Both the position numbers and the translations under genes were made by a program. 56,955 nt of DNA from an uncultured Cellulophaga sp. (lineage in GTDB: Bacteria > Bacteroidota > Bacteroidia > Flavobacteriales > Flavobacteriaceae): the NCBI GenBank assembly GCA_947491225.1, contig CANLIE010000020.1:1-56955 (forward strand), read 5' to 3'. The first letter of the stretch is position 1; each line of letters begins with the position of its first letter. Positions 16,955 to 27,912 of the stretch are shown in pieces. Below the pieces are notes generated by a model that saw nothing but the letters and a program-made list of their open reading frames with translations, was not told where the DNA came from and did no database searches.

Positions 16955-17040
16955 AGTTGCTTTTTTGGTCTATGACGCTGTAAGTGTTTTGCATAGCCAT
17001 AGTTATGGAAATTATGAATAATAAAATAGACCAAAAATGA

Positions 17041-17057
17041 ACACGCTTAATGCGTGT
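17041..17057. other. Short hairpin after the outer-membrane barrel gene
   Basis: Stem ACACGC / GCGTGT with a 5-nt loop, 42 nt after the barrel gene's stop on the minus strand. The following tract is only moderately T-rich, so it is a weak terminator candidate. Confidence 0.4.
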
Positions 17058-17098
17058 ATTGTATAGTTAAATTAGTATAAAACTACAATTTAAAACAG

Positions 17099-19795
17099 CT
17101 ATAGTTTGTAACTAATTTTAAAGAGTACAATTCTAGGTAGAATAAAGGTTTTACTGTCACTAATTAAAAAAGCATTAAAAGAGTTGTCTTGTTTAAACTG
17201 TGTGTCAAATAGATTAGTCGCTTTAATTTCAAAACCCCAAGGACTATCTTCTTGTTGGTAAAAAAGAGAAACCATAGCATTGTCAAAACTATTATCTATG
17301 TTTTGGTCTTTATTCACATAATTATCAAAATTATATTCTGCTTTTAAGGTAAAATCTTCTAGAAAAACATAATCTAAATAGGTAAAAAAATTGGTATTTC
17401 TATACTTGTTTTTCCCTACTGAAGTGTTGTAGTTACTATCGGTTTGTGTGTAGCCAACCTCTAAATTTGGGCCTTTTTTAAAAACAGTCTCTAGGCTTAC
17501 GGTATTTGAGAATCTCCCAGAAGTATTTTTTTGTGTCTCTGAGTTTACAACCTGATAAAAATTACTGTAGTTGTATGAGCCTCTGTATTTAGCCCTTATT
17601 TTTTTTATTCTCTTATTAAAATTGCCACTAAAGTACCAGTCGTCTTCTGGTTGTTTAAATAGGATTAAAGAATTAAACTGGTTAATGCCTTGCAACTGTG
17701 TTTCTCCTTTTAACTGCTCTGTTTTTTTATTGTATCTTATATTTAGGTTGTAAAATAAGCCGCGCAATAAACTTCTTTTAAAGTAATTAAAATTTGTGGT
17801 ATGAAAAAACTCATTTTCTAGGTTGGCATTGCCTCTAAAAACCGAATTAAAATTACGGAGTATAAAATTACTTGCTAAATTGTTTACAGAAGGGAAACGA
17901 GCATTTACTTTGTATTTAAAATTTGCTTTAGCACCATTTTTAAATTTAATTTCTGTAGTAAACTCTGGTGTAAGTACCGTTTTTGTGTTGGTTGTTTTTG
18001 TTTGTAACTGATGTAAAGACCAATTAAAATAATGTTGGTATACGGCAGGTTTAAACGTAAAAATACCAGTTCTAAATTTGTATTCTACTCCAATGTAAGT
18101 GTCTATAAAATTATGCTGTAGGTTGTTGCCAAAATCAGCGGTATTAAAATTGTTTATTTCTCCGCTACTTAAGAGCTGTACATCTTCATTTATAAACGAG
18201 TTAAAGGTTGAGTTTACACCCAAACTAAAATACAAGTGGTTGTAGTTGTTTAACACCCAATAGTCTTTTACAATGGCATTTACACTATGTGTTTTTACTT
18301 CTTTTGTTTGCTGTATGTTATATACATCATCTGTCTGTAACGGAATTAATCCTTGTAGTATTTCTTTATCTGTTTGCCAATTTGTGTTGGGCTTGTCTAT
18401 GGTATAACTGTGCGTGGCCTCTAAAGTACCGGTATGGTTGTCTGTTAGTTTACGACTGTACGATACATTTTGTTTTACCGTTAGTGCATCTATATCATTA
18501 GCGGTACGTATGCTATTAGTGTTTGTTGGGCTGTTTGTATTAATAGTATTTAAACCATTGTTGTTGGTTAGTTTTACAAACGTATTAAAAGCAAAATCTT
18601 CTTTGTATGTTGGGTTATAATCTAGGGTTATTTTACCAATAGTAAAAAAGTTATTTGCGTTGCTAGTAGTTGTTCTGTTTTCTGTAAAAGGATCGTTGTT
18701 GTTTTGGTAAAGATTTTCGGTTTGGTTTTCTGTATTGGTGTCTGTTTTAGATGCAATAACATAACCACTAATATCTGTTTTGTTGTTTAATGTTTGGCGT
18801 ACATTAAGTGCTCCAAATTTTTGACTACGCTCTTTAAAATCGTTGTTGCTTAAAAACTGGCTAAAGTCTGATTGGAACAAGCTAGACATACTACCAGAAC
18901 TAGCCAATATTTTGCTAAAACCACCTTCAAACTCCATATAGTCACTAAACGTAAAAGCTTTTTCTCCAGTGTTATTTACGTCACCTATAAAATTAATGTT
19001 GGTTTTAAGGCTGTAGTAAAACACATTTGGGTGTATAGAGTATCTATCTTTATGACCAGCAGCAACGTCTAAATCTCCAAATAAAAATTGTTTTTTATCT
19101 TTTTTAAGCTTAATGTTTAATGCCATTTTATCTGTGTTTTGCAACCCTTTTAGCATTGCAATTTCACTATAGTTGTCTATAATCTCTATTTGGTCTACAA
19201 CATTGGCGGGTATGTTGTTTACAGCCATTTTTGTATTTCCTGTAAAAAAGGGTTTGTTGTCTACCAAAACATTGGTAATTTTTTTGCCGTTAGAGGTTAC
19301 ATTACCTTCCCTGTCTACGTCTAAACCAGGCAATTTTTTTAAGGTTTCTCGTAGTTTGCGTTCTTTGCCATTGGTAAAGGCATCTGTATCATAAACGGTA
19401 GTATCTTCTTTAACCTCTATAGGTATTTTATAGGTAAGCTCTACACCGTCTAAAGTGTTTACGTCTTCTTGTAAAACAAAGTTTTTAGTAGTTTTTTCTG
19501 TAGCAATGGTTTTAAAAACAAGTTTTTTATATCCTAAATAACTAATGTTAATTTGGTAGGTGTAACCTTTTTGCAAACGTAATATGTAATTGCCTTTTTC
19601 ATTGGTTATGGCAAAGGTTGTTTCTGCATCATCACTATCTGGAAAAGCTAAAATATTGGCAGAGGGTAATGGGTTTTTTAGACTGTCTTGTACAATGCCT
19701 TTATATACGATTTCTTGACTGTAGTTACTAAGATAAGTTAGCATAAATATAATACCTAAATATGTGTTTAGGCTTAGAAGAAAAGTCTTAAGCAT
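17099..19795 (-). CDS. Outer-membrane beta-barrel protein of cassette 1 (CarboxypepD_reg / TonB-receptor-like)
   Basis: 898 residues. After a signal-like N-terminus, a carboxypeptidase-regulatory-like beta sandwich (IVYKGIVQDSLKNPLPSANI, about 30-110) precedes a plug-like segment (LRETLKKLPGLDVDREGNV, KITNVLVDNKPFFTG). About 600 residues of alternating strands follow, ending in FKISYKL as outer-membrane barrels do. No TonB box was recognised. Its ATG overlaps the stop of the GLPGLI gene by one base (TAATG), so translation is probably coupled. This gene type is usually found downstream of GLPGLI genes; what it transports or binds is not known, and the peptide encoded two genes upstream is a candidate. 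Confidence 0.85.
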   Translation of the reverse strand: MLKTFLLSLNTYLGIIFMLTYLSNYSQEIVYKGIVQDSLKNPLPSANILAFPDSDDAETTFAITNEKGNYILRLQKGYTYQINISYLGYKKLVFKTIATEKTTKNFVLQEDVNTLDGVELTYKIPIEVKEDTTVYDTDAFTNGKERKLRETLKKLPGLDVDREGNVTSNGKKITNVLVDNKPFFTGNTKMAVNNIPANVVDQIEIIDNYSEIAMLKGLQNTDKMALNIKLKKDKKQFLFGDLDVAAGHKDRYSIHPNVFYYSLKTNINFIGDVNNTGEKAFTFSDYMEFEGGFSKILASSGSMSSLFQSDFSQFLSNNDFKERSQKFGALNVRQTLNNKTDISGYVIASKTDTNTENQTENLYQNNNDPFTENRTTTSNANNFFTIGKITLDYNPTYKEDFAFNTFVKLTNNNGLNTINTNSPTNTNSIRTANDIDALTVKQNVSYSRKLTDNHTGTLEATHSYTIDKPNTNWQTDKEILQGLIPLQTDDVYNIQQTKEVKTHSVNAIVKDYWVLNNYNHLYFSLGVNSTFNSFINEDVQLLSSGEINNFNTADFGNNLQHNFIDTYIGVEYKFRTGIFTFKPAVYQHYFNWSLHQLQTKTTNTKTVLTPEFTTEIKFKNGAKANFKYKVNARFPSVNNLASNFILRNFNSVFRGNANLENEFFHTTNFNYFKRSLLRGLFYNLNIRYNKKTEQLKGETQLQGINQFNSLILFKQPEDDWYFSGNFNKRIKKIRAKYRGSYNYSNFYQVVNSETQKNTSGRFSNTVSLETVFKKGPNLEVGYTQTDSNYNTSVGKNKYRNTNFFTYLDYVFLEDFTLKAEYNFDNYVNKDQNIDNSFDNAMVSLFYQQEDSPWGFEIKATNLFDTQFKQDNSFNAFLISDSKTFILPRIVLFKISYKL

Positions 19796-20487
19796 TATTT
19801 CCTTTTGCGAGGTGGAGGATTTAAATTGTCATATTCTTTTTTTGATATTTTTTTCCCTTTAGTAAGTTTTTGTATAGTTTTTTTCTTATTAGAAGATAGA
19901 TTTATCTCTGTGGCAGAAAATAATAGTTTATCGTCTTGTAACTCTAAAATCATTCCTGGTAAGCCAAAATAACCATGAGGGCCAAAATTCCCCTTTATTT
20001 CTGGAGTATACCAAGCTGTTACTAATTTATTAAAACTGCCTTTACTGTTTACTGTGGTGTATGTTGTTGTAGCCTTGTAGCATATATATTTTCCTATTTT
20101 TTTAGCTTCCTTGGTTAATACCCATTTTGGTTTGTTTAGAGTAACAAGGTATAAATCTCCGTATGCCAAAGATTGAAGAATAAATTTACTGGTGGATAGG
20201 TTAATATAATACTTTTTTGACGCACCATAAAAAATGTTAGCTATTTTATTATTGATACTGTCATCTAAAAGTTCATCTAACTCATATAAAGATTCATTAG
20301 TATTAAAAGTTAATTTAAAATCTAATGTTGAGTTTAGTAATATATTGTTAATATCACTTAGTGTACCGTTTTTAGAACCATCCTTAAGCATTTTTGTTGT
20401 AGAAGCATTATATTTTATTGTATTATTTTGAGAGTAAATTCCAATTGAGATAGAAAGTAGAAATAAAATTAATATTTTTTTTTGCAT
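19795..20487 (-). CDS. GLPGLI family protein of cassette 1
   Basis: 230 residues with a Sec signal (MQKKILILFLLSISIGIYSQ). The naming motif appears as FGLPGMILELQDDKLLFSA near residue 170, preceded by the family's AWYTPEIKGNFGPHGY. The C-terminus is basic (NLNPPPRKRK). GLPGLI proteins (TIGR01200) are exported proteins of unknown function, typically next to barrel genes, as here. The gene begins 61 nt after the small peptide gene, with an 11-bp hairpin in the gap, and is coupled to the barrel gene by TAATG. Confidence 0.93.
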   Translation of the reverse strand: MQKKILILFLLSISIGIYSQNNTIKYNASTTKMLKDGSKNGTLSDINNILLNSTLDFKLTFNTNESLYELDELLDDSINNKIANIFYGASKKYYINLSTSKFILQSLAYGDLYLVTLNKPKWVLTKEAKKIGKYICYKATTTYTTVNSKGSFNKLVTAWYTPEIKGNFGPHGYFGLPGMILELQDDKLLFSATEINLSSNKKKTIQKLTKGKKISKKEYDNLNPPPRKRK

Positions 20488-20506
20488 AATATTTTTAAAG
20501 ATTAGT

Positions 20507-20537
20507 AACAGGAGATCATAATTAAAGATCTCCTGTT
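20507..20537 (-). terminator. Intercistronic hairpin, peptide 1 to GLPGLI 1
   Basis: Perfect 11-bp stem AACAGGAGATC / GATCTCCTGTT, 9-nt loop, lying 11 nt after the peptide stop. On the minus strand it is followed by a mixed AT tract rather than a clean T-run, so it may be a leaky terminator or an RNA-stabilising hairpin. Matching hairpins of unrelated sequence occupy the same place in cassettes 2 and 3. Confidence 0.75.
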
Positions 20538-20548
20538 TAATTTAATGC

Positions 20549-20770
20549 CTATGGCAACAATAGGCATAATTGATATATTGCTTCTGATAATTCATAAGCC
20601 TCTTGTTTAGTTGCACCAGCTTCTTCAGCTGCATCATCAATGTCATGTGCTAGTTGATCACAATCGATTTCAACACTATTGGATTCATTTATTACTGTAT
20701 AATTTTTAGCACTTAAACTTGCACCTACAAATAATACAACAGCAACAATACTAAATATTTTTTTCTTCAT
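20549..20770 (-). CDS. Small secreted Cys-containing peptide of cassette 1
   Basis: 73 residues. A canonical Sec signal (MKKKIFSIVAVVLFVGASLSA, cleavage likely after Ala21) leaves a mature peptide of about 52 residues. It is acidic and helical-looking, with two cysteines at 37 and 69 that could form one disulfide. No lipobox. The signal is nearly identical to that of the broken peptide gene at 22078-22323, while the mature parts differ. It is first in an operon with GLPGLI and barrel genes. I do not recognise a named family; the function is unknown. A bacteriocin-like, signalling or structural role would each be speculation. Confidence 0.8.
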   Translation of the reverse strand: MKKKIFSIVAVVLFVGASLSAKNYTVINESNSVEIDCDQLAHDIDDAAEEAGATKQEAYELSEAIYQLCLLLP

Positions 20771-20784
20771 AACATTAAATTTTA

Positions 20785-20807
20785 GACCTTTTTTATTTTT
20801 TAAGGTC
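20785..20807 (-). promoter_or_regulatory. Leader hairpin just upstream of peptide gene 1
   Basis: GACCTT / AAGGTC stem with an A/T-only loop ending 15 nt before the ATG at 20770. The identical element precedes the broken peptide gene at 22338-22360. It may affect translation start or mRNA stability; this is inference. Confidence 0.5.
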
Positions 20808-20825
20808 AGTTAATACTCATTTTAC

Positions 20826-20950
20826 TACAAAGTCTAAAACATACAAAGTTTATTTACAAAGCCAAATGTTACTTACAAAGTATAAAATAAAAACCAACGT
20901 TGGTTAAGGGATTACCCATTGTCTAAAAATCAGAATTAGAGGACTTTGTA
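20826..20950. promoter_or_regulatory. Iterated ACTTTGTA motifs upstream of peptide gene 1
   Basis: On the plus strand TACAAAGT occurs at 20826-20833, 20842-20849 and 20874-20881, with one variant TACAAAGC at 20855-20862. An opposite-facing ACTTTGTA lies at 20943-20950. The words start 56 nt upstream of the peptide ATG. They could be operator sites or part of repeated -7-like elements (TAnnnTTTG on the minus strand). No regulator gene lies next to the cassette. Confidence 0.45.
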
Positions 20951-21242
20951 AAACTCATTTTCTTTTTTTATGACACAGCTAATGTAAGAAAATATGTTTT
21001 AATAATGGGGGGGGTATTTTTTAATTTAACACAATGTTAACAAGATGTGTATTTAAAATACTACACATTTTTAACTATTAGTTAAAAAATAGTTTTGTGA
21101 GTTTAATAAACAGCTTTTAGGAAGACTATTTTTCTTATGATGAAATTTAAATTTTTCCTAAAACTTAACTTGTAAATTTAATGAGTACTAATAAAATTAT
21201 GATGTTGTAATTACTACTTGAATTCACCATAATATATATATT

Positions 21243-21258
21243 CATTTTAATTAAAATG
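21243..21258. repeat. 16-bp perfect palindrome in R1
   Basis: CATTTTAATTAAAATG. The same palindrome recurs at 22738-22753 in R2, 29-30 nt after the remnant GLPGLI stop on the minus strand. It is either a protein-binding site or a weak transcript-end structure. Confidence 0.5.
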
Positions 21259-21341
21259 TTAAGAGTGGTGAGTTGTTAAAATAATTCTACTTTCTCTCTT
21301 TTTTTAGTTTGTTATAATATTCATCACCAGCTTTTTTATAT

Positions 21342-22031
21342 TCACCTTTTGTCAAAGAAGTTTTTAAATTTTTCTCTGAAATCTTTTTCACTCATTCTTT
21401 TTCCTTCAAGATTTTTTTCTATTTGGATATAATTATCAGATATAAAAATTTGAGTAGCTTTGTATATGAACTTTCCTGTATTTAACTCTAAGATAACCCC
21501 TGGTAGACCATTATAATCTTTTGGGCCATAACTTAGAGGAATGTCTGTTGTAAACCAAGCGCTTATAGATGTTTGTTCGTTTTTTGAATCAAGTAAAAGT
21601 GCTTTGACACAACTATATTTTCCTATTTTCTTGGATTGATTTAAAATTTTCCAGTTTTTTTTATTGATTTCAATAATGAAATTATCTCCTCCTAACGACA
21701 TTTGTTTTTCTGTTTTTTTATTATTGTTATTATAATAAAACACATTGCTACCACCAGATCCGGTTTTAACGATGTTTAATTTAGATTTACTGTCATTTTG
21801 AATTGACTCTACTATTTCATATTTTGATATATTGTTATCAAAAATTAAATTATATAATACAGGGTCTGCATTTTCGATTATAAATTTTAGTTTTGGATTA
21901 TCATCAATTGCCTTTTTATTCAACAATTTTTTATTCAGGTCTACTTCGTAAGTTATTTTGCCTGATATTTTGTTTATAGGTTGAAAGTTAATACTTTGAA
22001 AAAGTATAAATATAAGAGTGATGTATTTCAT
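21342..22031 (-). CDS. GLPGLI family protein of cassette 2 (altered C-terminus)
   Basis: 229 residues, signal peptide at the N-terminus, and the motif as YNGLPGVILELNTGKFIYKA. The C-terminus ends REKFKNFFDKR. Directly after, out of frame, lies a GLPGLI tail (TKGEYKKAGDEYYNKLKKERK, stop at 21287-21289) that matches the in-frame tail remnant at 22782-22919. So the 3' end looks recombined or frameshifted, replacing about 20 residues with 4-5. Its peptide gene upstream has lost the start codon and no barrel gene follows, so it may no longer work with a partner here. Confidence 0.85.
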   Translation of the reverse strand: MKYITLIFILFQSINFQPINKISGKITYEVDLNKKLLNKKAIDDNPKLKFIIENADPVLYNLIFDNNISKYEIVESIQNDSKSKLNIVKTGSGGSNVFYYNNNNKKTEKQMSLGGDNFIIEINKKNWKILNQSKKIGKYSCVKALLLDSKNEQTSISAWFTTDIPLSYGPKDYNGLPGVILELNTGKFIYKATQIFISDNYIQIEKNLEGKRMSEKDFREKFKNFFDKR

Positions 22032-22044
22032 AATATATTTTTAT

Positions 22045-22071
22045 AAAGGGATAGTTGCGAACTATCCCTTT
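22045..22071 (-). terminator. Intercistronic hairpin, peptide 2 to GLPGLI 2
   Basis: Perfect 12-bp stem AAAGGGATAGTT / AACTATCCCTTT with a 3-nt loop, lying 6 nt after the peptide stop and 13 nt before the GLPGLI start. It has the same position as, but no sequence in common with, the cassette 1 and 3 hairpins. Confidence 0.8.
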
Positions 22072-22077
22072 TGTGTT

Positions 22078-22323
22078 TTATTGAGTGTAGCAATCCATAT
22101 AAATTGCATCATAAACTGCTAGATAAAAGTCTAAATCGTCATTTGGTTGTTCATCAAATGCTGCCGCAATAGCATACGTTCTTGATCTTGCCTCTCTAAC
22201 ACAATCAGAAGCTCTTCCATCTTCTACTTTAGCTTTAGAAACTTTATTAATTGTGTCATTCGCACTAAGACTTGCACTTGCAAACAGAACAACAGCAACT
22301 ACACTAAATATTTTTTTCTTAGT
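22078..22323 (-). pseudogene. Small secreted peptide gene of cassette 2, start codon lost
   Basis: An 81-codon open frame parallels the cassette 1 peptide: KKKIFSVVAVVLFASASLSA signal, then a mature part with two cysteines (codons 41 and 77) ending MDCYTQ. The codon in the place of the ATG is ACT, and the flanking bases otherwise match peptide gene 1 (TTTAACGTTACTAAG against TTTAATGTTATGAAG). No ATG, GTG or TTG occurs in frame between an upstream TAA and codon 76. The frame is otherwise intact, which suggests recent inactivation, or an assembly error in the start codon. Use of a non-standard start cannot be excluded. Confidence 0.75.
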
Positions 22324-22337
22324 AACGTTAAATTTTA

Positions 22338-22360
22338 GACCTTTTTTATTTTTTAAGGTC
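22338..22360 (-). promoter_or_regulatory. Leader hairpin upstream of the broken peptide gene 2
   Basis: GACCTT / AAGGTC stem identical to the one before peptide gene 1 and at the same distance from the start position. Confidence 0.5.
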
Positions 22361-22737
22361 GGTTATACATAATTTTACTACAAAGTCTATTTACAAAGCC
22401 AAATGTTACTTACAAAGTATAAAATAAAACTAAATATTGGTTAAGGGGTCACCCATTGTCTAAAAATCAGGATTAGAGGACTTTGTAAAACTCATTTCCT
22501 TTTTAGGATACAGCTAATGTAGGAAAAAATGTTTTTTAAAAAATGGGGTGTTTTTAATTTAGTATAATATTAACAATAAGTATATTAAAAATAGTTTTGT
22601 AAGTTTAATAAAACAGCTTTTAGGAAGACTTTTTTTCTTATGATGATTTTTTTCCCTAAAACCTAACTGCCTAAATTTAATGTGCACTTATAAAATTATG
22701 ATGTTGTAATTACTACTTGAATTCACCATAATATATT

Positions 22738-22753
22738 CATTTTAATTAAAATG
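22738..22753. repeat. 16-bp perfect palindrome in R2
   Basis: CATTTTAATTAAAATG, identical to the copy at 21243-21258. Confidence 0.5.
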
Positions 22754-22781
22754 TTAAGAGTGGTGAGTTGTTAAAATAATT

Positions 22782-22919
22782 CTACTTTCTCTCTTTTTTT
22801 AGTTTGTTATAATATTCATCACCAGCTTTTTTATATTCACCTTTTGTCATAGTTTTAATGTTTTTTGGCCAGTTTATAATAACTTCTTTTTTAGGGTTTA
22901 TTATTATTTCTTTTGCTAA
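22782..22919 (-). pseudogene. C-terminal remnant of a GLPGLI gene
   Basis: A 45-codon open frame begins LAKEIIINPKKEVIINWPKN, continues through TKGEYKKAGDEYYNKLKKERK and stops at 22782-22784. It resembles the region after the GLPGLI motif in this family, where a lysine-rich tail closes the protein. Upstream it is cut at 22920/22921 by the IS-like segment, so the motif region and signal peptide are gone. Confidence 0.7.
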
Positions 22920-22920
22920 A

Positions 22921-23000
22921 TAACGTGAGTTCGATTTAAGCTATTTCGATATTAGGCAAAATCTTTGAATTTTAATACTTGGCTTTGCATCTAAAAAAGA
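22921..23000 (-). mobile_element. IS-like 3' fragment, inverted copy of window bases 1-81
   Basis: Reverse complement of 1-81 with a few substitutions and one base missing from a T-run, which breaks the reading frame of the transposase-like C-terminus. The edge TAACGTGAG at 22921 joins directly to the GLPGLI remnant. Beyond 23000 the match cannot be followed because the other copy leaves the window. Upstream in frame (LTAYSFLDAKPS) a TAA appears near 23017, so this is a short decayed remnant. Confidence 0.6.
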
Positions 23001-23147
23001 ATAAGCTGTTAATTAGTTATGATTATTTTGAAATTGAAATAGCAGTCAATTCAGTTTCTTTATTGGTATACTTAATGATTGGTTAAAATCAGTTGTTTAC
23101 CATCTTACAAATTAAACAATTTCTACAAAATAAATCTAAAGGTCTTT

Positions 23148-25778
23148 TTATAGTGAAAATCTAACCTTAAACAATACTTGTGTAGGTCTTAATCTAAAAT
23201 TAGATTCCAAGTAACTAAAATTGTCAATATTTACAGTTTTATAATTTTCTGTGTTAAAAATGTTATTCCATTGTAAATCAAAATCAATATTTTTCTTTTT
23301 CCAAGTGTAACGATATACTAAATCTGTAAATAAATATTTGGTAGTTTCAGAGAATAAATTGTTTTTAATAAATTCTGTTTTTAGACTTAAGTATTGATTC
23401 TCTTTTGGATAGATGTTTAGATTGAATTTATGAAATTGTTGAGCTATTATTTGATTTTTTTGTTCTTGAATTTGATTGTTTGAAAACTGAAAATTAGATG
23501 TCAATTCTGTATTTAACCATTCAGTAATGTCAATGTCTAACTTTCCATTAAAACCCCAATTTTGACTTGAAATATTAGTGATTTCAGCATTCAATATTTG
23601 CTCAAAATTCTGTAAAGTATAATTGGTGTTTATAGTAATATTAGTATTTATTGAACTAATATAGTTACTACATTTAGCAGAAAAATTATGAGATTTTCTT
23701 TCATTATTTTGTTCAATAGCTTGAAAATTAATTGAACCATTATCTAAAATTTGTGAGTTGTAAAGTAAATTATTATTAGTTGCTGTGTTTAAATAAGATA
23801 AGTTAAAAAATAATGCTTTAATAGGATTTCTATATCCAATAAACATAGAATAACTAATGTTTTGTGTTTCAGGCAAAGGAGCATCTATACGTTGTATGTT
23901 TCTGTAATTTAGTAAGATGTAATTATAATATACTTGATTTATACTGCCAAATTGATTGCTTAAGCTTATTGATGAAGCAATATGCCATAAATTAGTAATA
24001 TCATAATTTAATAATAATTTAGGTTCAAAAGTGAGTCTATTTAGGTTTTGGTTGCGTTGTAATGGTTTATCCTCTAATTGATAATTATAAAAATTAATTG
24101 GAGTTTTTAATTCCATCCGTAATTTCTCTTTTTTGTATTGTGATTGTAAATTAAAATAGAATTTAGTGCGTAACCAATCTAAATTATTTTCAAAATTTTT
24201 AATTGTGTTTTCAGATGTTAAAATAGCACTTTCTAAATTCTGTTTTTCAAACTGAAAACCAACTTTAGGGCTAAAACTAAATTGTTTCCACCCTTTTGTA
24301 AAACCTAAAGAATTGTTAGTGTAAAATGTATTAAGTTCTAAGTTTTGAATAACTTCAGTATAATCATTACCATTATTTAATAAGTCATTAAACTGACCAG
24401 GATTTACTGTTAGCGATTGTGGTGTACAATTAAAACCTAAATAAGAATTTAATGTAGCAATTTGTTTACCAAATGGAAATAGCACTTTAAACTTATTTGA
24501 TAGTTTAAAGTAGTTATTACTTAAATTTTGACTAATATCATCATTATTAAGTTGAATATTACCTTGTTGATTATCCCAAAACCCTTGAAATTGAGTACTA
24601 TTTTTTAAAAAGTTTTTATCCGTATTTTTTTGAAGTGTCAGATTAGTTTCTAAAGTATTTGTGTAGAGTTGGTTATACTTTTTTTCAAATAAACTAATAG
24701 TGTCATTTGCGATAAAAAATTGCGTATTCGTAAATCCTTTTTGTTGTTGATAATCATTTAGATAAGATATGTTTAACCGAAATTCATAATCATTTTTTAA
24801 CTTTTGTAAGTAATTGGTAGTAATTAGATGAATATTATTGTCTAACCAACGTTGTTTTGTAAAATTAGGTATTTGTAGTTTTTGAATAGATAACCAATCT
24901 TGTTTCTTATCATTTTTTTCAAATTGCCCCAATAAATCTTCAATGGTTAACGATTTTAGCTGTGAAGCTACATCATTTCCTGTATTATTGGTTTGATAAG
25001 AACTCAATATTTGTTTTTGCTTTGAAAATAACATAGGCGTTATATTAACATCCCAAAGCAAAGGAGATAATCCACTACCAATTTCTGCCTGACCTGTAAA
25101 AGTGTAACTATTTTTAAGTTTTATGTTAATAGCAGCTTGGTCTGAATAGATTAAGCTATCCAACATTTTTATGGGTTGATGATTTTCTAAAACTTGTACT
25201 TTAGTAACTTCTTTGTGTGGCAAATTCTTATTCGCCAAACTGTATTTGCCTTCTAATAAATCTAACCCTTCTATATAATATTTATTAATAGGTTTTCCTT
25301 GGTACAATATTTTTCCATTATTTAAAACTTCAATGCCTGGCATATTCCTTAAAACATCTGCAATAGTCCTATCTTCTTGTTTAGAGAACGCACTTACAGA
25401 ATAATTTATAGTATCACCTTTACGAGTAATTGGGGTAGATTTTACAATAACTTCTTCCAATTCTGTTATTTCTTCTTCTAAAATAAAATTTAAAGTTTGG
25501 GTTTTATTTTTAATAGTTTTAACAACAGTTTTAAAACCCATTGATCTTATATTAAGCTTTAATTTTTCATTTTTATTATTTAGTGTAATTGAAAACTCTC
25601 CTTTATTATTAGAGATATTATAGTTTAAAATATTATCTGTGTTTATTTCTCTTACTGTAACAGTAGCTCCAGAGATTAACTTATTATTTAAATCTTTTAA
25701 TACACCGCTAATTCTGATTTGAGAAAAACTATAAAAAGAGAAAAAAAATGTAAAAGCTAAAATTAAAAGTTGCTTCAT
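23148..25778 (-). CDS. Outer-membrane beta-barrel protein of cassette 3 (CarboxypepD_reg / TonB-receptor-like)
   Basis: 876 residues. A Sec signal (MKQLLILAFTFFFSFYSFSQ) is followed by a carboxypeptidase-regulatory-like domain (IRISGVLKDLNNKLISGATV, about 21-105), a plug-like part (IADVLRNMPGIEVLNNGKILYQGKPINKYYIEG) and a long barrel rich in Asn and Gln ending LFKVRFSL. It has the same plan as the cassette 1 barrel, though the sequences have diverged. Its ATG overlaps the GLPGLI 3 stop (TAATG). It probably lies in the outer membrane; the substrate is unknown, and the cassette's secreted peptide is a candidate. Confidence 0.86.
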   Translation of the reverse strand: MKQLLILAFTFFFSFYSFSQIRISGVLKDLNNKLISGATVTVREINTDNILNYNISNNKGEFSITLNNKNEKLKLNIRSMGFKTVVKTIKNKTQTLNFILEEEITELEEVIVKSTPITRKGDTINYSVSAFSKQEDRTIADVLRNMPGIEVLNNGKILYQGKPINKYYIEGLDLLEGKYSLANKNLPHKEVTKVQVLENHQPIKMLDSLIYSDQAAINIKLKNSYTFTGQAEIGSGLSPLLWDVNITPMLFSKQKQILSSYQTNNTGNDVASQLKSLTIEDLLGQFEKNDKKQDWLSIQKLQIPNFTKQRWLDNNIHLITTNYLQKLKNDYEFRLNISYLNDYQQQKGFTNTQFFIANDTISLFEKKYNQLYTNTLETNLTLQKNTDKNFLKNSTQFQGFWDNQQGNIQLNNDDISQNLSNNYFKLSNKFKVLFPFGKQIATLNSYLGFNCTPQSLTVNPGQFNDLLNNGNDYTEVIQNLELNTFYTNNSLGFTKGWKQFSFSPKVGFQFEKQNLESAILTSENTIKNFENNLDWLRTKFYFNLQSQYKKEKLRMELKTPINFYNYQLEDKPLQRNQNLNRLTFEPKLLLNYDITNLWHIASSISLSNQFGSINQVYYNYILLNYRNIQRIDAPLPETQNISYSMFIGYRNPIKALFFNLSYLNTATNNNLLYNSQILDNGSINFQAIEQNNERKSHNFSAKCSNYISSINTNITINTNYTLQNFEQILNAEITNISSQNWGFNGKLDIDITEWLNTELTSNFQFSNNQIQEQKNQIIAQQFHKFNLNIYPKENQYLSLKTEFIKNNLFSETTKYLFTDLVYRYTWKKKNIDFDLQWNNIFNTENYKTVNIDNFSYLESNFRLRPTQVLFKVRFSL

Positions 25779-26629
25779 TAATCAATAATTTCTATTGGGT
25801 TATAGGGTATTTTCTTAAACTTACCCACACCTCTTACGATATCGTTTTGTAAAAATATTTCAGGTTTTTCGTGAAAATTTCTTTCTGCTTTGAAAAAGTC
25901 TTTTTTTGATGTTTTTACTATTTTTTTCTCAACTCTTTTATAAATTTCTTTTTGTTCATTATCTATACCAATAGCTATAAAATGGAAGTTTTTTTTATCA
26001 TCATACAATTCTAAAATTAAACCAGGTAAACTACCAAAAACATAAGGGCCTAAATTTATTGGTATTTCTTCCGTATACCAAGCTATCCAATTTCTGCCAC
26101 CATAATTAACCATTGCTTTTTTAACGTTGTATTTCAAAATTTTCTTGCTATTATTTTTAAGTTGCCAATTTAAATTAGAAACTTTTTCTTCAAATTCATA
26201 TTTAGTGCTTAATACTTTTCCTTGTGTTGTAAATAAATTATTTTGATAGCTATTAAAAATACTTTTTTTGAAACTAATTTTTCTTTTTATATTGATTTGT
26301 TGATTAGCTTCTTTACTACCTATGGTCTTTGAAACACTATGTTTCTTTTGTAAAGAATCAATTTTTAATGTATTTGTATCAACAAATTTTGAAATTTTTT
26401 TTCCTATTTGTAATACTGTTATAGAATTTTTAATTTTATTATCATCATTTGGGTTTATTAAGTGTGTATAATTATAATATATATTTTGTTTTGTTTTATC
26501 AAGTTCTATTTCTTTATATTCTCCAGGGGGTAGATTAAAGTTGCCTTTTAAAGTAAATTGTCCATTTAAATTACTTATTTTAAAAAGTATTAGTATTACT
26601 ACTAATATAGATATATTGTTTATTCTCAT
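25778..26629 (-). CDS. GLPGLI family protein of cassette 3
   Basis: 283 residues, longer than the two paralogues (229-230) because of extra sequence before the motif. N-terminal hydrophobic signal (NISILVVILILFKISNLNG). The motif reads FGSLPGLILELYDDKKNFHF near residue 200, preceded by AWYTEEIPINLGPYVF. The C-terminus is KIPYNPIEIID. It starts 52 nt after the peptide gene with a long hairpin in between and is coupled to the barrel gene by TAATG. Confidence 0.92.
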   Translation of the reverse strand: MRINNISILVVILILFKISNLNGQFTLKGNFNLPPGEYKEIELDKTKQNIYYNYTHLINPNDDNKIKNSITVLQIGKKISKFVDTNTLKIDSLQKKHSVSKTIGSKEANQQINIKRKISFKKSIFNSYQNNLFTTQGKVLSTKYEFEEKVSNLNWQLKNNSKKILKYNVKKAMVNYGGRNWIAWYTEEIPINLGPYVFGSLPGLILELYDDKKNFHFIAIGIDNEQKEIYKRVEKKIVKTSKKDFFKAERNFHEKPEIFLQNDIVRGVGKFKKIPYNPIEIID

Positions 26630-26643
26630 AATTTAATTATTTA

Positions 26644-26675
26644 TTGCTTCCACATAATTAATTATGCGGAAGCAA
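26644..26675 (-). terminator. Intercistronic hairpin, peptide 3 to GLPGLI 3
   Basis: A 16-bp inverted repeat (TTGCTTCC... / ...GGAAGCAA around a central AATTAATT), with a single mismatch that becomes a G-U pair in the minus-strand RNA. It occupies most of the gap between the peptide stop (26682) and the GLPGLI start (26629), as in the other two cassettes. Confidence 0.8.
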
Positions 26676-26681
26676 GTAAGT

Positions 26682-26894
26682 TTAACATTTTATTTCTGCA
26701 AAATATTCTGCTCGGTCAATCATTTCTTCTGTAGCTTCATATTGATCTGAACAAAGCCAAAAATCATTACCACAATCTGTCTTTACTTCAACCCAATTAC
26801 CACAAACAAATTCTTCTGCTACTGTTTCTTTAACATCAGTAGTTCCACTAAAAGATGCTAATAAAAATGTTAATCCTAAAAATAAACTTTTCAT
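26682..26894 (-). CDS. Small secreted Cys-rich peptide of cassette 3
   Basis: 70 residues. A Sec signal (MKSLFLGLTFLLASFSGT, cleavage around 18-20) leads to an acidic mature peptide of about 50 residues with four cysteines: C31, C41, C48 and C70. That could form two disulfides; the last residue is Cys. It is unlike peptides 1 and 2 in sequence but shares size, signal, Cys content, acidity and position ahead of a GLPGLI gene. No family recognised; function unknown. Confidence 0.78.
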   Translation of the reverse strand: MKSLFLGLTFLLASFSGTTDVKETVAEEFVCGNWVEVKTDCGNDFWLCSDQYEATEEMIDRAEYFAEIKC

Positions 26895-27090
26895 AGTTTC
26901 TAAAATTTAATTGCTCCATTAAAGGTTTTTAACGTTAGTTTTCGACCACTTATTGGGTTTAATTTTTACTTTTAATCAGATTTTTAATTCCTTTTTTGTT
27001 TTAACTACTTAAGCAGGATTGTCTTAAATTCATTCTATTTCTTAGCTCAAATAACTACCAACTTTTTCTTTTTTAAAATCATTTAACTTA

Positions 27091-27360
27091 TTTTACTACA
27101 AAGTCTATTTATAAAGCCAAATGTTACTCATAAAGTATAAAATAAAATTAAATATTGGTTAAGGGGTCACCCATTGTCTAAAAATCAGGATTAGAGGACT
27201 TTGTAAAACTCATTTCCTTTTTAGGATACAGCTAATGTAGGAAAAAATGTTTTTTAAAAAATTGGGGTGTTTTTAATTTAGTATAATATTAACAATAAGT
27301 ATATTAAAAATAGTTTTGTAAGTTTAATAAAACAGCTTTTAGGAAGGCTTTTTTTCTTAT
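27091..27360. repeat. Repeat copy R3: partial upstream-region copy beyond cassette 3
   Basis: About 270 bp matching R1 and, more closely, R2 from TTTTACTACAAAGTC to the CAGCTTTTAGGAAG block. One intact TACAAAGT (27097-27104) and the inverted ACTTTGTA (27198-27205) remain; other copies of the word have mutated. It stops about 200 nt upstream of the cassette 3 peptide start, so it may be the relic of another cassette or the distal promoter region of cassette 3. The bases between 26895 and 27090 match neither R1 nor R2 by eye. Confidence 0.75.
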
Positions 27361-27433
27361 AATAAAAGTAGAGCAACTATAATCCTAAAATTTGGATACT
27401 TTTAATGAATACAACAAAATAACTTTTAAAAAG

Positions 27434-27465
27434 TTGAAATTGTACAATTCAAAAAATTATCTTTG
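27434..27465 (+). promoter_or_regulatory. Promoter of the TerB-like gene
   Basis: TTG at 27434-27436 and TATCTTTG at 27458-27465, separated by 21 bp, match the Bacteroidetes -33/-7 pair. The ATG follows 24 nt later. Confidence 0.65.
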
Positions 27466-27489
27466 TTGTTTAAATAAAAATAGAAAATT

Positions 27490-27912
27490 ATGTCTTTTGT
27501 AGATTTATACGATAATAGTGAGCATAGGAGAAATGTAGCTCATTTTGCTTCCATAGCATCTTTAGCGAGTGTAGATGGTGAGGTAAATGAAGAAGAAAAA
27601 ACATTATTGAACCGTTTTGCATATAAACTAGGTATTACTGATGCAGAATATAAGGAGGTAATGAAAAATCCAACAAAGTATCCTATTAACCCTCCTGTAA
27701 ATTCAGAAAGACGTTTAGAACGTATGTTTGATTTGTTCAAGATTATTTTTGCAGATCATGAGATAGATGATGAAGAGCGTGTTTTAATAAAGAAATATGC
27801 TATTGGTTTAGGTTATTCTAGTGACTCAGCTGATAAGGTAATATCAAGATCTATCATTATTTTTAGCGGTAAACTAAATTTTGATGATTATGCTATGCTA
27901 GTAAGAAAATAA
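27490..27912 (+). CDS. TerB-like protein
   Basis: 140 residues, all-helical, with two TerB-type segments: HFASIASLASVDGEVNEEEKTLL (about 18-40) and LFKIIFADHEIDDEERVLIKKYA (about 81-103). Each has an acidic loop (DGEVNEEE, DHEIDDEE) that in the family is thought to bind metal. No signal peptide, so probably cytoplasmic or membrane-associated. TerB domains occur in tellurite-resistance and stress systems, but no other ter gene is nearby, so a stand-alone role is likely. It has its own promoter and terminator. Confidence 0.8.
   Translation: MSFVDLYDNSEHRRNVAHFASIASLASVDGEVNEEEKTLLNRFAYKLGITDAEYKEVMKNPTKYPINPPVNSERRLERMFDLFKIIFADHEIDDEERVLIKKYAIGLGYSSDSADKVISRSIIIFSGKLNFDDYAMLVRK

What the first reader, a model, noticed from the sequence alone, without database searches (positions are those of the whole stretch)
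17099..26894. Repeated cassette: secreted Cys peptide, GLPGLI protein and outer-membrane barrel
Two complete and one partial copy of the same order occur on one strand within 10 kb: small exported peptide (50-60 mature residues, 2-4 Cys), GLPGLI protein, and large CarboxypepD-type barrel. Spacing is regular (peptide to GLPGLI 46-61 nt, GLPGLI to barrel TAATG overlap). Repeated co-duplication suggests the parts work together. The peptide may be exported, processed or sensed by the pair, or the pair may build a dedicated route for it. GLPGLI proteins have no known function, so this layout is a lead to their role. This is inference from arrangement.
Basis: partly seen in the sequence, partly recalled or inferred. 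Interest (0 to 1): 0.75.

Follow-up and report, generated by a model that had tools for sequence, protein, structure and literature searches.

The report
Exchangeable peptide, GLPGLI and transporter cassette
A small exported disulfide peptide gene, a GLPGLI gene and an outer-membrane transporter gene form a recurring, swappable cassette in the bacterial phylum Bacteroidota, which gives the mysterious GLPGLI proteins a likely partner and a test of what they do.

Summary
On the minus strand lie two complete cassettes (peptide, GLPGLI, barrel of 876 or 898 aa) and one decayed one (no barrel; its peptide frame has no start codon). The genus is Cellulophaga.

The layout recurs. Of 246 distinct GLPGLI genes with sequence upstream, 54 have a small exported ORF with at least 2 Cys just before them, against 0 of 454 other genes in the same loci. 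Peptides fall into two types (helical hairpin, beta-beta-alpha), labelled before any tree was made. Both the barrel tree and the GLPGLI tree separate the types with a single change.

At one syntenic Cellulophaga locus the barrel is 97% identical between two species while peptide and GLPGLI are replaced together; breakpoints lie near the starts of the peptide and barrel ORFs. Mature peptides look under purifying selection in four orthologue pairs. The GLPGLI model matches PNGase F-II and LolA; the barrel matches TonB-dependent transporters.

Best guess (0.4): a kin-discrimination or bacteriocin-like system: the peptide enters kin through a shared transporter and the cognate GLPGLI neutralises it in the periplasm. 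Function is inferred; that the parts form one system is strongly supported.

The parts
26682..26894 (-). unit A: small exported peptide, 70 aa, 4 Cys in the mature part, classed beta-beta-alpha
   Evidence: ORF; crude signal-peptide rule met, 52 nt before GLPGLI; class by eye, strand-minus-helix score 0.05
25778..26629 (-). unit A: GLPGLI protein, 283 aa
   Evidence: TIGR01200 169.8 bits, cut-off 50; PNGase_F-II_N 34.9 bits, cut-off 27.6
23148..25778 (-). unit A: TonB-dependent-transporter-like barrel, 876 aa
   Evidence: CarbopepD_reg_2 42.5 bits; barrel tree, clade with L170
22078..22323 (-). unit B: decayed peptide frame, no start codon, helical-hairpin class, 2 Cys
   Evidence: frame read; core 72% identical to a peptide in another Cellulophaga MAG, L041, dN 0.23 against dS 1.24
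21342..22031 (-). unit B: GLPGLI protein, 229 aa, without barrel
   Evidence: TIGR01200 131.9 bits
20549..20770 (-). unit C: small exported peptide, 73 aa, 2 Cys, helical-hairpin class
   Evidence: ORF; 61 nt before GLPGLI; alignment A5
19795..20487 (-). unit C: GLPGLI protein, 230 aa
   Evidence: TIGR01200 148.3 bits
17099..19795 (-). unit C: TonB-dependent-transporter-like barrel, 898 aa
   Evidence: Pfam CarbopepD_reg_2 39.2 bits, Plug 19.5 bits (below 23.9); AlphaFold2 pLDDT 82.8, Foldseek best hit Cir 4.7e-17
22788..22931 (-). C-terminal remnant of a lost GLPGLI gene
   Evidence: profile match 6.1e-7; 99% repeat 22731-22852 / 21236-21357
27063..27363 (-). shared upstream element of unit A
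   Evidence: query positions 28-328; 95% to unit B; alignment A7
22343..22644 (-). shared upstream element of unit B
   Evidence: 95% to unit A
20790..21145 (-). shared upstream element of unit C
   Evidence: 74% to unit A

Best explanation
Shown: the three genes recur together, match in class and are exchanged, as parts of one heritable system. Inferred: the peptide leaves the cytoplasm by Sec (in two relatives a double-glycine-type leader takes the place of the signal peptide), forms one or two disulfides and reaches the outside. A TonB-dependent transporter of the matching class, nearly constant among related species, takes it into the periplasm of kin. There the cognate GLPGLI protein, a LolA-like bowl, binds it. 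The likeliest purpose is kin discrimination or competition: the peptide harms cells that have the shared transporter but lack the matching GLPGLI, so GLPGLI is immunity, extra GLPGLI paralogues are protection against other peptides, and peptide-GLPGLI pairs are exchanged under a fixed transporter. Which step harms the cell is unknown, and no killing has been shown.
For: Association: 54 of 246 GLPGLI genes against 0 of 454 controls (Fisher p 4.5e-27). Genus survey with the public profile: 8 of 54 GLPGLI genes, in 6 of 18 Cellulophaga genomes. Class matching: H against B peptides need 1 change on the barrel tree (36 rows) and 1 on the GLPGLI tree (54 rows); 198 of 200 shuffles shown gave 8-15 and 13-20. 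Exchange: L031/L032 barrel 97% identical, peptide 40% overall, last GLPGLI 36%; homology stops 42 nt inside the peptide ORF and resumes 50 nt inside the barrel ORF. Elsewhere a barrel pair 85% identical goes with GLPGLI 33% and mature peptide 18% (L140/L148). Five unit pairs with GLPGLI at 50% or more (one of them a duplicate within one locus) have mean mature-peptide identity 67, against 23 for 1453 pairs under 35%. Runs of 4-6 GLPGLI genes without a peptide found before them in L031-L033. Real genes: dN/dS 0.06-0.38 in four pairs, dS near saturation in three. Double-glycine-type leaders at L169 and L089, resembling NF047798 'bacteriocin-like' at 15.2 and 10.8 bits, under its cut-off of 23.5. 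Folds.
Against: No toxic activity, secretion or binding is shown. 192 of 246 GLPGLI genes have no such peptide, and a long GLPGLI plus barrel pair without peptide is present in 15 of 18 Cellulophaga genomes, though not found in the window's own, so the ancestral role of the pair need not involve peptides. Peptide-GLPGLI pairing is not strict: unit B and L041 peptides are 72% identical over the core but their GLPGLI only 38%, and L042 has the GLPGLI of L041 (99%) with no peptide found. Pairs without an adjacent barrel occur. Class matching could be deep common descent of whole cassettes rather than recognition. Rank correlation of peptide identity with barrel identity (0.24) is higher than with GLPGLI identity (0.14) over 630 non-independent pairs. 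The AlphaFold run gave no interface measure.
Confidence: 0.4

Rival explanations
1. Dedicated export route: the peptide reaches the periplasm by Sec, GLPGLI acts as a LolA-like carrier that hands it to the barrel, and the barrel brings it to the cell surface or outside.
For: LolA similarity of the GLPGLI model; the peptides show only a Sec-type signal and would need some way over the outer membrane; barrel nearly constant while its clients change; class matching.
Against: The barrel has the fold of TonB-dependent importers; runs of GLPGLI without peptides would be carriers without cargo; peptide-GLPGLI pairs without adjacent barrel.
Confidence: 0.2
2. Peptide as signal or scavenger: it is released, carries a message or captures a nutrient, and is taken back by its transporter and bound by GLPGLI in the periplasm.
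For: Importer fold and peptide-free GLPGLI-barrel pairs in 15 of 18 Cellulophaga genomes fit an uptake system; class matching.
Against: Replacement of the peptide under a near-constant barrel is odd for a carrier whose receptor must know it; I noticed no sensor or sigma factor gene inside the window cassette (not searched by profile).
Confidence: 0.2
3. The peptide is a periplasmic subunit or regulator of the transporter and does not leave the cell.
For: Small size, Sec-type signal only, fixed place in the operon, class matching with the barrel.
Against: Pairs without an adjacent barrel; extreme divergence, with only two Cys (and in B the start Met) invariant in alignments of 29 H and 16 B peptides; double-glycine-type leaders in two relatives.
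Confidence: 0.12
4. Chance ORFs or untranslated leader ORFs upstream of GLPGLI.
For: Small ORFs are common; unit B lacks a start codon.
Against: 0 of 454 control genes, and 1 of 454 for any small exported ORF; invariant Cys; dN below dS in four pairs.
Confidence: 0.02

Closest known systems
GLPGLI family (NCBIfam TIGR01200, Pfam Porph_ging)
   Same: All three window proteins pass the curated cut-offs.
   Different: The family name carries no function. The held library mentions it in 3 papers, in the passages seen as names in tables of regulated genes, in one discussion of regulons, and in a remark on annotation; none of those passages speaks of exported peptides.
N-terminal bowl-like domain of PNGase F-II (4r4x, 7zgn) and LolA fold
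   Same: The AlphaFold model with a GLPGLI protein matches these entries best (8.8e-7, 9.8e-7; LolA 9azz 3.1e-4).
   Different: No glycosidase domain is in these 229-283 aa proteins. [quoted passage not shown]
Bacteroidetocins
   Same: Small Bacteroidota peptides with several Cys; two related loci here have double-glycine-type leaders, one beside thioredoxin-like genes.
   Different: Bacteroidetocins have 15-16 aa double-glycine leaders, an ABC exporter with peptidase, and no obvious immunity protein (PMC6671954, passages seen). Window peptides A and C have Sec-type signals and a GLPGLI-barrel pair.
Microcin or colicin systems with TonB-dependent receptors (Cir, FhuA)
   Same: Barrel fold; the adjacent GLPGLI could be immunity; a shared receptor with variable toxin-immunity pairs is the pattern expected (recalled).
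   Different: Here the receptor-like barrel is in the same operon; no killing known; the partner is GLPGLI, exported and so probably periplasmic.
SusCD-type uptake systems
   Same: Large barrel with carboxypeptidase-regulatory-like N-terminal domain (SusC resemblance recalled).
   Different: No SusD match among the seven cassette proteins scanned.

Membership tests
GLPGLI family TIGR01200 | profile score above curated cut-off of 50 bits | tested here: met
   148.3, 131.9, 169.8 bits
TonB-dependent transporter | barrel-plus-plug fold | tested here: met
   Foldseek Cir 4.7e-17, then FhuE, FoxA, FpvA, FhuA, for the unit C barrel only; TM-scores by query 0.29-0.41 in the 50 rows shown
TonB-dependent transporter | Pfam Plug domain above gathering score | tested here: not met
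   19.5 and 12.7 bits, cut-off 23.9
TonB-dependent transporter | TonB box | tested here: inconclusive
   consensus LxEVVI before the plug-like region in alignment A4; the motif is recalled and was not tested
Bacteroidetocin | double-glycine leader of 15-16 aa | tested here: not met
   window peptides A and C meet a crude Sec signal rule instead; no NCBIfam or Pfam bacteriocin match
Bacteriocin with immunity protein | toxin gene and cognate partner adjacent and exchanged together | tested here: met
   exceptions
Bacteriocin with immunity protein | killing, and protection by the partner | not testable with these tools
   needs bench work
Known anti-phage defence system | PADLOC model match | tested here: not met
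   6 of 7 proteins without a hit at 0.1; one weak hit, 14.8 bits, E 0.0065
SusCD system | SusD-like surface lipoprotein beside the barrel | tested here: not met
   no SusD match among 7 cassette proteins at E up to 1

The most novel reading that the evidence does not exclude
GLPGLI proteins of this type are a large, unrecognised family of periplasmic immunity (or peptide-receiving) proteins with a LolA-like fold. Each is paired with its own exported disulfide peptide, and pairs are swapped under a class-matched TonB-dependent transporter as type-switching, self-recognition loci across Bacteroidota.
Probability: 0.4. Interest if true: 0.88.

Novelty: categorically new. Interest (0 to 1): 0.78.

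Why it matters
GLPGLI proteins are common in Bacteroidota (121 of 149 genomes sampled from the window's family have a match to the profile A1) and have no known function. A recurrent peptide partner, class matching with a transporter and visible exchange of pairs turn the question into a small set of direct tests. If the toxin reading is right, it is a new variant of peptide bacteriocin system with its own entry port; if the export or uptake reading is right, it is an undescribed peptide route across the outer membrane. No known family or described system that I found covers the whole, which is why it is rated categorically new rather than filed under one of these; the literature search behind that is narrow.

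Tried and rejected
Co-duplication inside the window: rejected, coding parts are old paralogues. Peptides as Pfam, NCBIfam or PADLOC members: of the peptides scanned none reaches a cut-off. Orphan peptides: profiles A5 and A6 over 18 Cellulophaga genomes gave full-length matches only at GLPGLI loci, most of which were rows of the models; the other hits match the signal part or lie in long frames (two regions looked at), so sensitivity is limited. A run of small exported proteins in G010 proved unrelated, no Cys. RNA family in window 17000-27600: none at gathering score; promoter and terminator scan uninformative (70 and 2 found, 64.8 and 2.8 expected). Interface between peptide and GLPGLI: the tethered AlphaFold model gives no interface score, so nothing is claimed. 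VIA-align library absent. ABC peptidase exporter near the double-glycine peptide at L169 (about 18 kb on each side) or in L089: not found by simple motifs, which is not a profile search. One dN/dS row (L086/L087 GLPGLI) was out of frame and is dropped.

Limits: the 246 GLPGLI genes come partly from a profile built mainly of peptide-linked members, so 54 of 246 is not a prevalence; the figure from the public profile is 8 of 54 in the genus. There a further exported ORF with 4 Cys, 220 nt before the GLPGLI of L045, resembles a metal-binding protein and is not counted. The signal-peptide rule is a crude script, not SignalP. H and B labels were set by eye before the tree; an independent strand-minus-helix score separates them well (35 H, one of them a duplicate, and 21 B; Mann-Whitney p 3.5e-9) but with overlap. 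Trees are FastTree only, with some long branches.
Full report
What is in the window. The minus strand from 26894 to 17099 holds unit A (peptide, GLPGLI, barrel), unit B (peptide frame without a start codon, GLPGLI, no barrel) and unit C (peptide, GLPGLI, barrel). On one side lie a short plus-strand gene and an FBPase-like gene, on the other an Mfd-like gene (these names are by recall from the sequence). The GLPGLI proteins pass TIGR01200 and the barrels carry CarbopepD_reg_2. Peptides A and C match nothing above a cut-off in Pfam or NCBIfam. A fourth cassette lies elsewhere in the genome (L043). One genome of the genus set (G014) has a contig of the same length, with GLPGLI and barrel ORFs at the same places, as a public MAG contig of Cellulophaga sp. 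(L041 and L090), and the C. fucicola contig of L093 has the length of G004's contig and the same peptide (L032), so the genus is Cellulophaga.

Array history. About 300 bp upstream of A, B and C are 95% (A-B) and 74-77% (with C) identical; among the 40 of 183 candidates scored in the genome nothing else matches comparably. A GLPGLI remnant at 22788-22931 and a 99% repeat of its tail at the 3' end of GLPGLI B suggest that the array was cut down by recombination. The coding parts are not recent copies: GLPGLI A and B are 24% and 32% identical to C, barrels 19%.

Is the layout more than chance? In 18 Cellulophaga genomes TIGR01200 gives 54 genes in 17 genomes. In the fetched surroundings 8 of them, in 6 genomes, have an intact small exported ORF with 2 or more Cys within 100 nt upstream; a ninth (L041) is cut by a contig end and unit B is the decayed tenth. 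Over 251 distinct GLPGLI ORFs from genus, family and named loci, 246 had 350 nt upstream; 54 have such a peptide (61 any small exported ORF), against 0 (1) of 454 other genes of 200 aa or more in the same loci. Named carriers are Allomuricauda sp., Muricauda lutisoli, Allomuricauda profundi, Flavobacterium tibetense, F. cheniae, Mesonia aestuariivivens and C. fucicola. In loci from order and class samples 10 of 62 GLPGLI genes have one, including two families besides f1 in the order sample (L214 in f5, L217 in f2) and one in the class sample (L232 and L238, f54). In a later fetch 17 of 59 did, partly the same genes. In the four genomes of family f5 there (G169, G183, G249, G275) 8 of 34 had a peptide and none of these 8 a barrel directly downstream. 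In the Saprospiraceae and Chitinophagaceae loci read, the barrel often precedes GLPGLI and no peptide with 2 Cys was found by the script.

Two peptide classes. Class H has the pattern C-x3-A ... Y-x2-C, with exceptions, and is predicted in one case as two helices (pLDDT means 79-90 for residues 21-60 of the tethered model); class B has beta-beta-alpha character by eye. I set the labels before building trees; a strand-minus-helix score over 25 residues from the first Cys agrees with some overlap (35 H, 21 B, p 3.5e-9). On the barrel tree of 89 rows, 20 of 20 H rows lie in a 32-row group (local support 90) with no B, and 14 of 16 B rows in a 25-row clade (support 100) with no H; the other two B rows are long branches elsewhere. 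With peptide-less rows ignored, H and B need one change on the barrel tree (36 rows) and one on the GLPGLI tree (54 rows). At operon level 23 of 32 and 14 of 25 barrels of the two groups have a peptide by the script. Reading the upstream frames of 18 places without one shows further class-consistent candidates at L153, L151, L156 and L143, and a double-glycine-type peptide at L169; the others showed none I would call.

Exchange. L031, L032 and L033 are the same locus in three species, after the FBPase-like gene as in the window. Barrels are 96-97% identical and the array GLPGLI genes that correspond are 79-95%, but the last peptide and GLPGLI before the barrel are replaced. Between L031 and L032 homology ends 42 nt inside the peptide ORF and returns 50 nt inside the barrel ORF, so the mature peptide, the GLPGLI and the start of the barrel are replaced as a block. 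The window's unit C barrel is 92% identical at DNA level to that of L031 from 72 nt inside its ORF, and 87% to L033 over GLPGLI plus barrel, where L033 has no peptide. Among pairs of complete units with barrels of 69-85% identity, GLPGLI are 27-37% and mature peptides 14-30% identical, apart from L086/L087 (81, 85, 72). Where GLPGLI is conserved the peptide is too (five pairs, mean 67 against 23). The clear exception is unit B and L041: peptide core 72%, GLPGLI 38%.

Peptides look like real genes: dN and dS are 0.19/0.49, 0.11/1.75, 0.39/1.75 and 0.23/1.24 in four pairs; three of the dS values are near saturation.

Folds. The tethered model, whose larger part is a GLPGLI protein of F. tibetense, matches PNGase F-II and the plant-glycan PNGase 7zgn (8.8e-7, 9.8e-7), then LolA (3.1e-4). 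By sequence the GLPGLI profile also finds 7zgn, itself deposited as 'Glpgli family protein' (0.0043). The barrel model matches TonB-dependent transporters.

Mechanism. Shown: recurrence, class matching, exchange, signs of purifying selection. Inferred: release of the peptide, entry through the barrel, binding by GLPGLI, harm to non-kin. The toxin-immunity reading is preferred because it accounts together for a near-constant barrel, swapped peptide-GLPGLI pairs, and GLPGLI runs without peptides (4-6 genes in L031-L033). Double-glycine-type leaders at L169, L335 and L089, similar to a 'bacteriocin-like' leader model but under its cut-off (15.2, 18.0 and 10.8 bits against 23.5), point the same way, weakly. 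Against it stands the peptide-free long GLPGLI-barrel pair found in 15 of 18 Cellulophaga genomes, which suggests an older role, perhaps uptake; the toxin system would then be a derived use of it.

Literature. Four terms for the family gave 3 papers in the held library; in the passages seen none describes peptides. Searches for bacteriocins with TonB-dependent receptors in Flavobacterium or Flavobacteriaceae gave nothing relevant by title and abstract start, and a six-term search on secreted peptides in Bacteroidetes gave no paper. One Bacteroidales peptide-mining paper was searched for four terms and holds neither GLPGLI nor TonB (PMC10352776). Bacteroidetocins were read in passages only (PMC6671954); their target BamA comes from the listed title and abstract start of PMC8546649. 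The library holds open-licence papers only, so absence there is weak evidence.

Noticed in passing
window 27063-27363, 22343-22644, 20790-21145: The shared upstream element carries two or three ACTTTGTA-like boxes and one inverted copy (TTACAAAGT) in each unit, a possible operator; the stretch before and into the peptide ORF is also 92% conserved between L031 and L032.
   Followed up: partly
L169:3297-3518, L335:825-1037, L089:3987-4175: Double-glycine-type leader peptides with several Cys instead of Sec peptides near GLPGLI; at L169 two thioredoxin-like genes flank the cassette and L335, just downstream, holds a second peptide with nearly the same leader and a different core.
   Followed up: partly
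L031, L032, L033: Arrays of 5-6 GLPGLI paralogues with at most one peptide found and one barrel at the end, downstream of the FBPase-like gene.
   Followed up: yes
L060, L065, L066, L075, L207: A different exported protein of about 116-123 aa with 0-2 Cys lies directly upstream of long GLPGLI genes; it could be a counterpart of the peptide in the core system.
   Followed up: no
L088:2862-3588: A GLPGLI gene split into two overlapping frames behind an intact-looking peptide in Mesonia aestuariivivens: a decaying unit.
   Followed up: no
L332:3771-6666: Five tandem exported proteins of about 100 aa without Cys in another Cellulophaga genome, not near GLPGLI.
   Followed up: partly
L034 and L035: Very close barrels on the tree, one with an upstream peptide and one where none was found: a recent gain or loss.
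   Followed up: no
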